Positions 6,016 through 63,971 of a stretch of DNA of 64,000 nt are shown here, piece by piece. A program made the position numbers and the translations under genes. Numbering within the stretch: position 1 is the stretch's first letter; each line of letters starts with the position of its first letter. This DNA is from Taxawa tesnikishii (nom. ined.) (Eukaryota > Ascomycota > Dothideomycetes > Dothideales), in NCBI GenBank assembly GCA_030247885.1, contig JAPDRO010000001.1:1426001-1490000 (forward strand). The letters are read 5' to 3'. Below the pieces are notes generated by a model. That model was not told the origin of the DNA. It made no database searches and saw only the letters and a list, made by a program, of their open reading frames with translations.

Positions 6016-7860
6016 ATGAAAGACACTGATGGAAAATCGCTCCCGGACAGGCAGGGCAGGAGAGATGCGGCTATCCAGGTGATTTGCTTAGTATGTCTTC
6101 TCGATGACCTCAATGGCTCAGTCTTTAGCTTCTGCTTCTGAGGGAGGCGATGGATTGCATGGACGCAGTAACACGCTGTAGCTCAACGAATGCGCGCCTG
6201 TCTAGTAAGCTACCGGTAATCACGTACTAACATCCGCTTAGGGGTCTGGAGGTGGTCCAAGCGAAGACAATGTCACAGGTCTTCTTGTGCGGTCCAAATC
6301 GACGCACTGGGGCAAGGGCTCTTTGCTTGCAGTTGACGCTGGATCACATCTTGCAGCCATTACGCGAATCCTTCAAACAGATCTACCACTTGTTACACCG
6401 GAGCCCACACAGCCAGAGCCAACGAACTCTCAGTACGCTGGTGCGGATTCATCACCTTATTCGTCACCGGCTCCCGTCGAGGTTCCACCTCCACCCGAAC
6501 CTACGATTCTGGAGTCTGGTCCTTTCGCCGGTCTTCCACTTCCGTATAAGTCAGCGCGTGCGAATGCAGCCCATGTGGTCCACTCGCAAGTGTCTGCCTA
6601 TCTGATCACCCATCCGCATCTGGATCACCTATCCGGATTCGCCATCAACACCGCGTGCTTCCATGCAACATCACGGCCGAAAAACTCGCGGCTCTGCCAT
6701 TTACAGTAGATGCGATTAAAAGGCACATCTTCAACGACATCATCTGGCCCAATCTCACCGATGAAGAAGGCGGGGTAGGATTCGTCACTTTTCAGCGCCT
6801 TAAGGAAGGTGGCGATGTGATGGTCGGAGAAGGGGAAGGAAGAGGTTACATCGAGGTGTGCGAGGGTCTGGGTGTGAAAGGCTTCAAGGTCAGTCACGGC
6901 AACTGCATGAAGAATCCATCCACGCCTGTTCAACGCGGCAGTATCAGCGGCGTATCAGAGTATGGAGGAGCATATCGTGGCAGCGTTAGTCGCGGCAGTC
7001 GTCAAGACGCACGTTCTATGTCGCTATCGCATCTCATGATGCCGGACACGCCAGGTCACGGCTACGTGTCTACTCCTATGGCACAGTCGCCGCAGCAATA
7101 CGCTCCCGGTGATATGGGACAGCAAACCACCGTGGTCGACAGCACAGCATACTTTATCCGCGACTATGCCACTGCAAGAGAGTTGCTCATATTCGGTGAT
7201 GTCGAGCCAGACAGCGTGTCCCATGCGCCCCAACTATCACATGTTTGGGCCGAAGCTGCACTTAAGATCGCCGCCGGCGTCCTGACAGGCATCTTCATCG
7301 AGTGTTCGTACGATGACAGTCAGGGAGACGCCGTTCTATTCGGTCACATGGCGCCACGCCATCTGGTTGTTGAGATGCAGGTTCTCGCCAACATGGTCAA
7401 AGACGAGAAAGCATCACGCGCTGCAGAGAGGGCTCAGAGAAAGCGCAAACGAGCTGGCAATGGGATGAGCGTGTCCGAAGGAGACGATCGCAAACGTAGC
7501 CGCAGCCAGGCGAGCAGGCCTGTCACAATACACAACCGGCGCCTCAGCATACCCGACGAGGCTATCTCGAACACGCCGGACAGTCAGTCATCGGCGCACG
7601 CTGCAAGCAAAATGCCAGCCTCGGCTCTAACGTCACCGAAGACCGTGAGCCATCCGCCCGAGGTATCGTGGCCGGATCCTCCGCTCAAAGGGCTCAGAGT
7701 TGTGATCATCCACGTCAAGGATACCTTGAAGGACGGTCCTCCGGTCGGCGAAAGGATTTTGGAGCAACTGAACGAACATGCGAGGGCTTTTGCCGAGAGG
7801 CAGGAGGAGTTGGGGTGCGAGTTTGTTGTCAGCGAGTCGAGCAAGGATTATTGGTTTTGA
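6016..7860 (+). CDS. PDE1: Low-affinity (class II) 3',5'-cyclic-nucleotide phosphodiesterase
   Basis: Hydrolyses cAMP and so dampens PKA signalling. Exon 1 is 6016-6090 (ends AAIQVICL) and splices over a 151-bp intron to GSGGGPSEDNVTGLLVRS, the conserved start of the class II fold. Metal-binding motif HPHLDHLSG lies near 6607-6635. Downstream blocks AALPFTVDAIKRHIFND, IIWPNLTDEEGG, SHVWAEAALKIAAGVLTGIF and RHLVVEMQVLANM fit the family. A basic, low-complexity insert (about 7430-7650) separates the last block from the C-terminal RVVIIHVKDTL. The frame breaks inside the A5 run at 6680-6684: upstream reads TSRPK, downstream KLAALPF, and a sixth A would give an unbroken SRPKKLAALP. I judge this an under-called homopolymer rather than a real mutation, because conserved sequence lies on both sides. 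Confidence 0.85.
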
Positions 7861-9154
7861 AGACTTTGCGTCTTTATGGATCTGCAGCATGGATGGTAAC
7901 GAGCAACGGGATGCATGCGCAGGCGTCCGGAATTTGTGTTTCTAAGGGAGGGAGGGAGGGTTCAAGAGCCTGGTGTTTATGTGGATTTTTGTTGCTGGTA
8001 GGCCTCGCGTGCTGCGTTTTGAGACAACTATATGAAACAGGGAATCCCATGAAATTGGGTGTCCGAATTCTTAGTAAACTCCTTCTCGAATAGACACCTC
8101 TGTTAATGATAACCGGTTGCTCGTGTTCCCAGAATCATACGTTCCGCATGCATGTACTCTTCTAGGATGATAGTAGAAGGATCAGCGAAGAAGCGGACTT
8201 GGTCGGGCGTGGTGGGCTCCTCGGTCCGGGTCCGTCGAGTCTTGAATCGCGCGCGCGATTCCTCGCTGTGATGTCAAACTCCAATACGTAGACAGACGAG
8301 GACAAACCACCCTGCTCCCCTACTCCCCTACTCCCCTACCCATGCTTGCGGATCCCTCATCCGAAACTCTTAGACGTACGGGGAACAGCTTCCATCCACA
8401 CAGACACCTCCTTACCTTGTTGGTCGAACAGACACAGACACGGCACCGCGCTCGCTGTCATAGGCTGCTGATAGGCTTGTCCGCCGTACTGGCCGCATCC
8501 GTGCCATTGCAGGAACGCCACTATCACCATTGGCCGGCCTTCAAGCCTTCCCGGATCCCGGACTCTTATTGTTGCGGTGTGAGGCCCAAGGATTGAACTG
8601 ACAGGTCGTCATCGGGGAACTGCATTCCACTCGGTTCGCCGGAAGCCGCTCTATCAAGGAAACCTACCGACACGGCGGTGCGACGAGCCCTCATCATGGA
8701 GGTGAGCCATTTAACCCTTTTTTTGCATGAGTAAGGCCGGTCGAGGGAGGTGCACGGTGTGTTGCTTGGGCCGTGAGGACGCGACTGCCTCTTGCTGTGC
8801 GAGGGTAAGCAATAATGCTTTGTTTCTTCGCTCTTGTAGTAAAGCTTCCTGCAAGTCCTGCAGGTAGCAACAGCAGCTTTCTGTCGGCACATTGTCCTGT
8901 CTAAAATCGAACCTGCGATTCCTGCTACCAGGCGTCAATTCTTCGTCTCGGAGACGCGCATATCTGTATTCTGCCGGCGGAGACAGATGTACCATAGCTC
9001 TCTACGCTCACCGCGATTGTTGTCATCTCATTGGGCGCTCGGGCTAATGTGTTGCTGTATCTTAGGACAGACGAGTATTTGCTTGGTGTCGCTCCAGATT
9101 ATTGGCGCGCCACTCGCCGACTTTTTACTTTCACTGTCAATCTAAGCCCTTACC
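7861..9154. other. Intergenic, one short minisatellite
   Basis: PDE1 3' flank and GTR2 upstream region. The only structure seen is a short CTCCCCTACT tandem repeat at 8314-8340. No frame here has a recognisable motif, and a TTCGA-like stretch near 8910 does not fold as a tRNA T-arm. Confidence 0.45.
8314..8340. repeat. CTCCCCTA tandem repeat
   Basis: About three copies of a CTCCCCTA unit in tandem, in intergenic DNA. Confidence 0.7.
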
Positions 9155-61963: not shown

Positions 61964-63971
61964 TTAAGCACCGTTTGTGCCGTTCACTTGCTTTTCGAGG
62001 TTAGCGACGACCGAGCTTTTGGAATCGGGAGCGCTCTGTGGCTCGTTGTGGATCTTCAAGGGGCTCAGGTCCGCTTCACTCTGTGTGTTCGAGCGGGATG
62101 CACGGAATGGCTTTGGTGTGCCGGGCCTGCTAGAAAGGAACTGTGATCTCATCAGCAAGTCAAAACATGCGCGGACAAGACATGATTCTTACCGAAGAAG
62201 CAGCTGACAGCATTGCCATGAGAGAACCTTGAACGACATCCTGATGGATACCGACACCCCAGACCTTCTGATGATTACTGGCAGATGTACATTCGATGAA
62301 GGTTGCGGCCTTGACATCACTTCCCTTTCCGATGGCGTGCTCCTTGTAGTCCACCACGTCGAGATCAATGCCGAGCGTCTTCAACGCGTTCGCGAGAGAC
62401 GACAGGGCACCGTTGCCCGTACCCTTGATCCTGTGTTCTTGGCCATCGATCTCGATCACGCCCTCGAAACGACGCTTGAGGTTGCGGTTCGAGGCGCTCT
62501 TGCCGTCAGCGGGCGGTGCAGGCGACACGGACCGGTCGGTCGAGATGTCGTAGTCGACGAGGCTGAAGCGAGGGTTTCTGTCCAGGTGGTATGCATCAAC
62601 GAAAAGATTCTTGATTTCTGTTGGCTGCAACTCCCGGCCGAGCCTGTCCGTCTCCTTCTGCACGATCTTGCTGAATGCAATCTGGAGTCCACGAGGCAAG
62701 TCGAGTTCGAGCGTGCGGTGAATGATCCAGGCAACTCCACCTTTTCCAGACTGGCTGTTGACGCGAATGATGGCCTCGTAGGTCCTGCCAATGTCCTGTG
62801 GGTCGAGAGGAAGGTAAGGCATCTCCCACGGAGAGTCGTCCTGGTCGCCCCGCTGCTTTCGTACCTGGAAACCTTTCTTGATTGCGTCTTGATGGCTGCC
62901 AGAAAAGGCGCAGACGACTAGTTGTCCACCGTATGGTGCTCTGGGATGCACGGGAATCTTGTTGCTCTTCTCTACAATGTCGATCACGCTGTTGATGTCG
63001 CTGAAGTCAATGTTCGGGTGCACTCCTGAGTGTAGAGATTCAAGGCTAGCGTTACCAGATCCACGTTACCCGTTCTTTCGCCGTTTCCGAAGAGAGTACC
63101 TTCTACCCTGTCTGCACCAGCCATCTGTGCAAGTTCTGCTGCAGCAACAGCGCATCCTCTGTCGTTGTGTGGGTGGAGAGACACGCAGATCTTCTCTCTT
63201 TCTGAAATATGCCGGCAGAAGTATTCAATCTGGTCGGCGTAGACATTCGGTGTGGACATCTCCACTGTAGCTGGAAGATTGAAAATGATAGGGTTCTCCT
63301 CAGAAGGTCCCCAAGCCTCCTTTACTGCGTCGCAAATCTCGACAACAAACTCTGGATCGGAATCAGAGAAGGTCTCTGGCGAGAACTCGTACATCCAGTG
63401 AGTTCCAGACTGGGTCGGATCGTCCTTGGTGATACTCCTCGCGTATTTGGTACATTCCACTGCCAAGGCCTTGCTCTGCTCGTTGTTCATCTGGAACACG
63501 ATCTGCTGGAAACACGGGCTGGTAGCCAGGTAGATGTGGAGGATAGCCTTCTTTGCGCCTCTAAGAGAGTCGACCGTCCGGCGGATCAGCTCCTTGCGGC
63601 AAGGTGAGAGGACTTGGAGAGCGACATCGTCAGGTACTACGCCAGGAGTGGTGACGAGTCTGCGAGTGAAATCGAAGTCGGTGTCTGAAGCAGAGGGGAA
63701 TGATACTTCGATTTCCTTGTAGCCCAGCTTGACCAGCATCTGGAAGTAGCGCCATTTTTGCTCGCCATCCTATGCGACACACTTAGACAGATGGCATTTT
63801 CCAACTTCTTTTATGCAAAGAGCGTACCATAGGGTCGACTAAACTCTGGTTTCCATCTCTTAGGTCTGTCGAGAGCCACCTGGGGGCTTGTCGAGGGACT
63901 TGGACGGCCATTGTCTGTCTGGGAGGTTGAGAGGAGTGAACTTCCTGTACTTCTTAGAGGGATCTTTGAGC
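61964..63971 (-). CDS. LEU4: 2-Isopropylmalate synthase (partial at the right edge)
   Basis: First committed step of leucine synthesis: acetyl-CoA plus 2-ketoisovalerate. Exons seen: 63971-63828, 63769-62193 and 62140-61964; the start lies past the right edge, behind an acceptor at 63972. Motifs: DPSKKYRKFTPLNLPDRQWP, RWLSTDLRDGNQSLVDPMDG, KLGYKEIEVSFPSASDTDFD, SLHPHNDRGCAVAAAELAQM (metal and substrate His), GTLFGNGERTGNVDLVTLAL, then IPVHPRAPYGGQLVVCAFSG. The C-terminal leucine-sensing domain follows: GTGNGALSSLANALKTLGID and GVGIHQDVVQGSLMAMLSAA. A tail of 59 residues comes from the last exon (RPGTPKPFRASRSN). One missing base at 63025-63026 (CC): with a third, the text is LYTQGVHPNIDFSDINSVID. 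Likely sequence error. Confidence 0.93.

What the first reader, a model, noticed from the sequence alone, without database searches (positions are those of the whole stretch)
6680..63026. Thirteen single-base losses, all the same direction, in ten conserved genes
I traced frame breaks by matching conserved protein text on both sides. Each is one base short, never one long: 6680-6684 (A5, PDE1), 11317-11320 (T4, Dap1-like), about 32884-32895 (GC tract, UPF1), 34980-34983 (C4, UPF1), 29654-29657 (C4, MFS), 39295-39300 (T6, proline-rich), 40932-40935 (G4, GNAT), 40887-40889 (G3, GNAT), about 49802-49806 (G5, MBL fold), 53468-53469 (CC, FRE), about 56605-56650 (CPS1), 60854-60857 (C4, CPS1), 63025-63026 (CC, LEU4). 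About half of the genes, including UPF1 and LEU4, are otherwise perfect. Decay of real genes would give insertions too, and stop codons; I see neither. The simplest reading is homopolymer under-calling by the sequencing method. If the bases were real, it would mean widespread minus-one recoding, which would be extraordinary.
Basis: partly seen in the sequence, partly recalled or inferred. Interest (0 to 1): 0.72.

Follow-up and report, generated by a model that had tools for sequence, protein, structure and literature searches.

The report
Missing single bases: sequencing errors
Many genes in this fungal genome appear broken because single letters are missing from the assembled sequence, which is best explained by a known kind of long-read sequencing error rather than by unusual biology.

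Summary
The window is part of a 29.4 Mb, 34-contig assembly, by its genes a filamentous fungus. Of the 13 listed sites, 6 are confirmed by homology as one base short (LEU4, UPF1 twice, PDE1, MFS, CPS1 at 60.85 kb), 1 is half confirmed (Dap1-like), 4 agree in coding statistics only (proline-rich, MBL, FRE, CPS1 at 56.6 kb), 2 (GNAT) are unresolved. LEU4 is one base shorter than 80 of 80 bacterial loci. The pattern is not local: a flank and two distant genes show it too. All 14 conclusive homology tests give the minus-one class; one more was inconclusive. A frame-tracking model with equal penalties deletions, 5 insertions. Nine of 14 break intervals touch a run of 4 or more, 1.3 expected. G/C runs of exactly six are depleted also outside called genes, which recoding cannot cause. 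One of 14 sites has a slippery heptamer. Best explanation: deletion-biased consensus error of a long-read assembly, mostly but not only in homopolymers. Not a real biological feature; no reads were available to prove it.

The parts
6678..6687 (+). Frame break (minus-one class) in PDE1-like cAMP phosphodiesterase gene
   Evidence: PDEase_II and PDB 4ojv on both sides, D=-7
11315..11322 (+). Frame break (minus-one class) in Dap1/cytochrome-b5-like gene
   Evidence: upstream half aligned to 1j03; downstream by recalled text only
29640..29664 (-). Frame break (minus-one) in MFS transporter gene
   Evidence: MFS_1 columns continue across, D=-1
32888..32898 (+). Frame break (minus-one) in UPF1, zinc-binding domain
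   Evidence: D=-1
34977..34985 (+). Frame break (minus-one) in UPF1, helicase domain
   Evidence: residue 742 of 2wjv at 34981 before and 34980 after
39295..39324 (-). Frame change, minus-one class, proline-rich protein gene (coding statistics only)
40836..40943 (-). GNAT gene: two frame changes, cause unresolved
49802..49834 (+). Frame change, minus-one class, MBL-fold gene (coding statistics; downstream Lactamase_B match weak)
53413..53471 (+). Frame change, minus-one class, ferric-reductase gene N-terminus (intron not excluded)
56613..56741 (+). Frame change, minus-one class, CPS1/DIP2-like gene (intron not excluded)
60827..60866 (+). Frame break (minus-one) in CPS1/DIP2-like gene
   Evidence: AMP-dom_DIP2-like columns continue across, D=-1
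63022..63029 (-). Frame break (minus-one) in LEU4 (isopropylmalate synthase)
   Evidence: 80 of 80 bacterial loci have one base more

Best explanation
The assembled sequence lacks single bases that are present in the organism. A long-read consensus with deletion-biased error, strongest in homopolymers and most visible for G/C runs of six, has shortened runs throughout the genome at roughly one loss per 4-6 kb of coding sequence. In genes each loss shows as a minus-one frame break between two well-conserved halves. Shown: direction, run-length enrichment, spread over several contigs, depletion of six-base G/C runs in sequence not called coding. Inferred: that the bases exist in the DNA, and that the platform was a long-read one with little correction by accurate reads.
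For: 14 of 14 conclusive homology tests are of the minus-one class: six in the window, three in the flank, five on other contigs. The frame-tracking model with equal penalties gives 29 deletions against 5 insertions in 264 kb (sign test 4e-5), 16 against 4 when both sides score at least 10; spike-ins are found equally in both directions (115 of 145 deletions, 119 of 143 insertions). Read by eye, two of the 5 insertion calls are introns with weak donor sites, one is weak, two stay open. Break intervals: 9 of 14 touch a run of 4 or more, 1.3 expected. G/C runs of exactly six: 6 seen, about 26 expected; bacterial loci at GC near 0.50-0.60 reach 0.72 of expectation; sequence not called coding: 5 against 20.6. 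MutS and MutL homologues are present, one MutS homologue with an open frame of 921 residues. Published precedent: a nanopore-only fungal assembly with frame-altering homopolymer indels in conserved genes (PMC7500977, passages); nanopore consensus after Racon with deletions above insertions (PMC8011154, passages).
Against: No reads, cDNA or second assembly could be consulted. 5 of 14 intervals hold only runs of 2-3. A/T runs of seven or more are not depleted (17 seen, 9.4 expected, noncoding), and four G/C runs of 9-11 survive, so it is not a uniform collapse. Most of the 29 deletion calls (20 of 24 in the flank) have no homology test that succeeded, and some may be introns. In one search the best intron candidate scores as high as or higher than a shift even at five homology-confirmed sites, so coding statistics alone cannot separate the two. 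In PMC7500977 polishing added more insertions than deletions; in PMC8011154 the unpolished Flye drafts held more insertions, and Racon plus Medaka left more insertions than deletions in one of the two tables seen: direction depends on the software. The Markov expectation and the bacterial controls (0.56 to 1 within the three GC bins) are imperfect stand-ins for an accurate fungal genome.
Confidence: 0.93

Rival explanations
1. The bases are truly absent and the genes are decaying or polymorphic, for example in a strain with deletion-biased homopolymer slippage (a mismatch-repair mutator).
For: Such mutators would also give minus-one losses in runs and deplete runs in noncoding DNA (recalled). 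Several broken genes are dispensable in yeast (recalled). CPA2/URA2-, PurL- and ClpB-type genes are open over the matched part.
Against: MutS and MutL homologues are present (not every copy checked for intactness). Halves on both sides of breaks stay conserved (GCV2-like segments 42-75% identical to E. coli GcvP; UPF1 aligned over 697 residues). A DEAD-box helicase gene is also broken. Four fresh losses in one 3 kb gene with conserved text between them are hard to get by decay.
Confidence: 0.04
2. Some of the listed breaks are introns read as frame breaks (this can be true beside the main explanation).
For: The model finds many introns, median 61 nt; two of five insertion calls in the flank look like introns; for CPS1 56.6 kb and GNAT an intron scores above a shift after penalties, for MBL about equal; for FRE it scores lower but is not excluded.
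Against: At the six confirmed sites an intron would delete conserved residues; LEU4 matches intronless bacterial genes with the same residues on both sides. Introns give both directions, not one.
Confidence: 0.25
3. The genome is right and ribosomes shift back by one base at many sites (widespread minus-one recoding).
For: Direction is uniform in the homology tests; one of 14 sites (GCV2-like, second break) carries a canonical slippery heptamer.
Against: 1 of 14 is near the background of 101 in 5000; no shared motif is seen by eye; the distance to the stop in the old frame varies from 3 to 72 codons over seven window sites; six-base G/C runs are depleted in sequence not called coding; GLT1- and GCV2-like genes are broken while other genes of similar length are open.
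Confidence: 0.01

Closest known systems
Indel-driven frame breaks in nanopore-only fungal assemblies (Drechmeria coniospora, PMC7500977; passages seen)
   Same: Conserved genes of a fungus split by homopolymer-length errors, so that separate open frames together still give the orthologue
   Different: There polishing introduced more insertions than deletions; here losses dominate
Residual indel error after consensus polishing (Homopolish paper, PMC8011154; passages seen)
   Same: After Racon deletions exceed insertions (both tables seen), and for one isolate also after Racon plus Medaka; such indels shift reading frames
   Different: Unpolished Flye drafts there held mainly insertions. Platform and software of the present assembly are unknown; one loss per 4-6 kb is about Q36-Q38 by my arithmetic

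Membership tests
Deletion-biased long-read consensus error | Frame breaks overwhelmingly one base short | tested here: met
   14 of 14 conclusive homology tests; 29 against 5 by model
Deletion-biased long-read consensus error | Concentrated in homopolymers | tested here: met
   9 of 14 intervals touch a run of 4 or more, 1.3 expected; 5 of 14 do not
Deletion-biased long-read consensus error | Run-length spectrum truncated also in noncoding DNA | tested here: met
   G/C six-runs 5 against 20.6 outside called coding sequence; but A/T runs of 7 or more and four long G/C runs are not reduced
Deletion-biased long-read consensus error | Spread over the genome, not one locus | tested here: met
   contigs C1, C10, C12
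Deletion-biased long-read consensus error | Accurate reads show the missing bases | not testable with these tools
   no reads or second assembly held
Programmed minus-one ribosomal frameshifting | Slippery heptamer X XXY YYZ in the zero frame at the shift | tested here: not met
   1 of 14 sites, background 101 of 5000
Programmed minus-one ribosomal frameshifting | Stimulatory RNA structure downstream; trans-frame product | not tested
   not folded; no proteomics
Mismatch-repair mutator decay | Loss of MutS/MutL homologues | tested here: inconclusive
   homologues found, but not every copy was checked for intactness

The most novel reading that the evidence does not exclude
A filamentous fungus in which a large share of genes, including UPF1 and LEU4, needs a minus-one shift of the ribosome or RNA-level slippage at heterogeneous sites to make full-length protein.
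Probability: 0.01. Interest if true: 0.95.

Novelty: not a real feature. Interest (0 to 1): 0.08.

Why it matters
It warns that gene models, pseudogene counts and gene-loss claims from this assembly are unreliable: at roughly one lost base per 4-6 kb of coding sequence, a large share of longer genes would look broken. If it were recoding instead, it would overturn what is known of fungal translation, but the evidence points the other way.

Tried and rejected
An intron in place of the two GNAT breaks was my first idea (branch-point-like text and TAG; it stands in my note). Counted by hand, the best-looking intron is 72 nt and leaves the wrong phase, and other candidates would remove conserved GNAT text or score poorly, so the pair is left unresolved.

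The codon-only frame model was too weak; an order-3 model was used, trained and run on the same 264 kb. Its last training round gave 30:5, later runs 29:5. Over six penalties the ratio runs from 34:9 to 8:1. Under the default setting both UPF1 breaks and the MFS break are absorbed as introns, wrongly by homology. With a relaxed intron model deletions exceed insertions in all nine settings (2:1 to 32:7). Without an intron model the ratio is 34:16, 24:10 and 11:3 at three penalties.

Pfam checks of flank calls: 11 of 24 deletion calls and 4 of 5 insertion calls were examined. Both sides hit one family for 4 deletions (three D=-1; HSP70 in L023 gave +38 and was dropped from the count as inconclusive, since an intron is not excluded) and for no insertion. 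A weak HSP70-like pair on C3 also differs by the minus-one class and was not counted. A search with ORFs from 81 bacterial loci found no further break besides LEU4; its automatic pairing gave mostly +80 or +68 for LEU4 because one match ran on past the break (same class modulo three); the fixed halves give -1. Family PF00083 scored only 9 of 323 candidates in the whole genome and was not used. Rfam (gathering cut-offs) and tRNA scans of the window were empty.
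Full report
What was given.

Where the window lies. The window is bases 1426001-1490000 of contig C1 of an unnamed assembly of 29,367,862 bases in 34 contigs. Introns, a HET domain and conidiation-protein repeats point to a filamentous ascomycete (the inference is from recall). 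I fetched 200 kb of adjoining sequence and two small stretches elsewhere. Gene names such as GLT1, GCV2, CPA2, URA2 and MET6 below are recalled labels for homologues of the E. coli proteins used as queries.

Testing the thirteen sites. Frames were scanned one by one, stops read as X, and for each break I compared the DNA position of the same homologous residue before and after it. LEU4: the two halves were searched in 80 bacterial loci that carry a LeuA homologue (the best 80 of 504); in 80 of 80 the window is exactly one base shorter. Because bacterial genes lack such introns and the same residues abut, this excludes an intron. UPF1: residue 742 of structure 2wjv falls at 34981 in the first frame and 34980 in the second; at the zinc-binding domain, residue 55 of 2iyk falls at 32894 and 32893. 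MFS and the second CPS1/DIP2-like break show the same minus one in Pfam coordinates. PDE1 is one base and two codons shorter than yeast PDE1, 4ojv, with two bases between the aligned blocks, so no room for an intron. The Dap1-like gene is confirmed only on its upstream side. For the proline-rich, MBL, FRE and first CPS1 sites coding statistics agree with a minus-one step, but for the last three an intron is not excluded; in fact the intron candidates score as high as a shift, or higher, also at five of the confirmed sites, so homology, not this statistic, decides. The two GNAT sites remain open. So 6 of 13 are confirmed, 1 half confirmed, 4 consistent, 2 unresolved.

Is it local, and is it one-directional? 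A frame-tracking model with introns and equal penalties for both directions, trained and run on the 264 kb, called 29 deletions and 5 insertions (30 and 5 in the last training round); in the window it called 5 and 0. With both sides scoring at least 10 it is 16 and 4. Spiked random edits were recovered equally: 115 of 145 deletions, 119 of 143 insertions. Read by eye, two of the five insertion calls are introns with weak donors, one is weak and two are unresolved; the deletion calls were not all read in this way. Pfam confirmed three flank deletions exactly (a sugar transporter in L014, an MFS protein in L019, a DEAD-box helicase in L021), left one inconclusive (HSP70, L023), had no match on both sides for the other seven it was given, and could test none of the four insertion calls given to it. 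In the whole assembly I searched seven E. coli proteins: genes like CPA2/URA2 (two), PurL (one) and ClpB (two) are open over the matched part; MetE- and DnaK-like genes show gaps of intron size, not looked into further; the GLT1-like gene has one break and the GCV2-like gene four, all of the minus-one class (three of the four GCV2 breaks give exactly -1, the third +11, i.e. minus one and four codons more). In the same GCV2-like gene a gap of 56 bases with intron signals stands apart from these. Altogether 14 of 14 conclusive homology tests are minus-one class; a two-sided sign test by hand gives about 1e-4. The strong matches sum to about 31 kb of coding sequence (my addition), hence about one loss per 6 kb; the model gives one per 4.3 kb of called coding sequence (29 in about 124 kb).

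What the lost bases sit in. In 14 break intervals (the 14 above without the loosely placed third GCV2 break, plus Dap1; set by hand from the alignments, those of MFS and CPS1 wide), 9 touch a homopolymer of four or more; random coding intervals of the same lengths give 1.3 on average and none of 4000 draws reached 9. Five intervals hold only runs of two or three. Independently of homology, G/C runs of exactly six are rare: 6 in 264 kb against about 26 expected from an order-3 Markov chain; 47 bacterial loci with GC near 0.50-0.60, of 81, hold 67 against 93.6 expected (0.56 to 1 by bin), and all 81 hold 141 against about 184. In sequence not called coding it is 5 against 20.6 (this may include missed genes). 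Against a simple collapse, A/T runs of seven or more are not short in number and four G/C runs of 9-11 are present.

Explanation. The simplest account is a consensus that drops a base, mainly in homopolymers and most visibly in G/C runs of six, in an assembly without full correction by accurate reads. Recoding cannot thin out runs in noncoding DNA, lacks its usual signal (1 of 14 sites with a slippery heptamer, background 101 of 5000), and the old-frame stops lie anywhere from 3 to 72 codons on (seven window sites). A mutator strain would produce a similar spectrum, but MutS and MutL homologues are present and the broken genes are otherwise well preserved. Papers seen in passages only report the same kind of damage: frame-altering homopolymer indels in conserved genes of a nanopore-only fungal assembly (PMC7500977; there polishing added more insertions than deletions), and deletions exceeding insertions after Racon (PMC8011154; the unpolished drafts there held more insertions, and Racon plus Medaka gave insertions in excess for one isolate, deletions for the other). 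The platform and software used here are unknown.

Verdict. It is an artefact of the assembly, useful as a warning, and not a biological novelty.

Noticed in passing
L121 (C10:269051-272151): A GCV2-like glycine decarboxylase gene with four minus-one breaks in 3 kb, while PurL- and CPA2-like genes of similar length have none over the matched part; error density seems uneven.
   Followed up: partly
L009 about 1216 and L023 about 1742: Two frame changes of the plus-one class that do not look like introns; possibly insertion errors or two close losses each.
   Followed up: partly
L009:5594, L016:1693, L016:4881, L021:2501: G/C runs of 9, 9, 9 and 11 although only seven runs of 6-8 exist in 264 kb; why these survive is unexplained.
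   Followed up: no
window 2063-2971, 3355-4916, 9429-10441, 23795-25042, 26644-27111, 31023-31981, 42416-43758, 46057-47426: Genes with no break seen other than gaps of intron size: S9-type ribosomal protein, EF1-gamma, Gtr1/RagA, carnosine N-methyltransferase, Con-6, Brix protein, aspartyl protease, cation efflux protein. A PfkB kinase gene (about 15131-16818) is only partly covered: profile columns 128-158 were not seen.
   Followed up: partly
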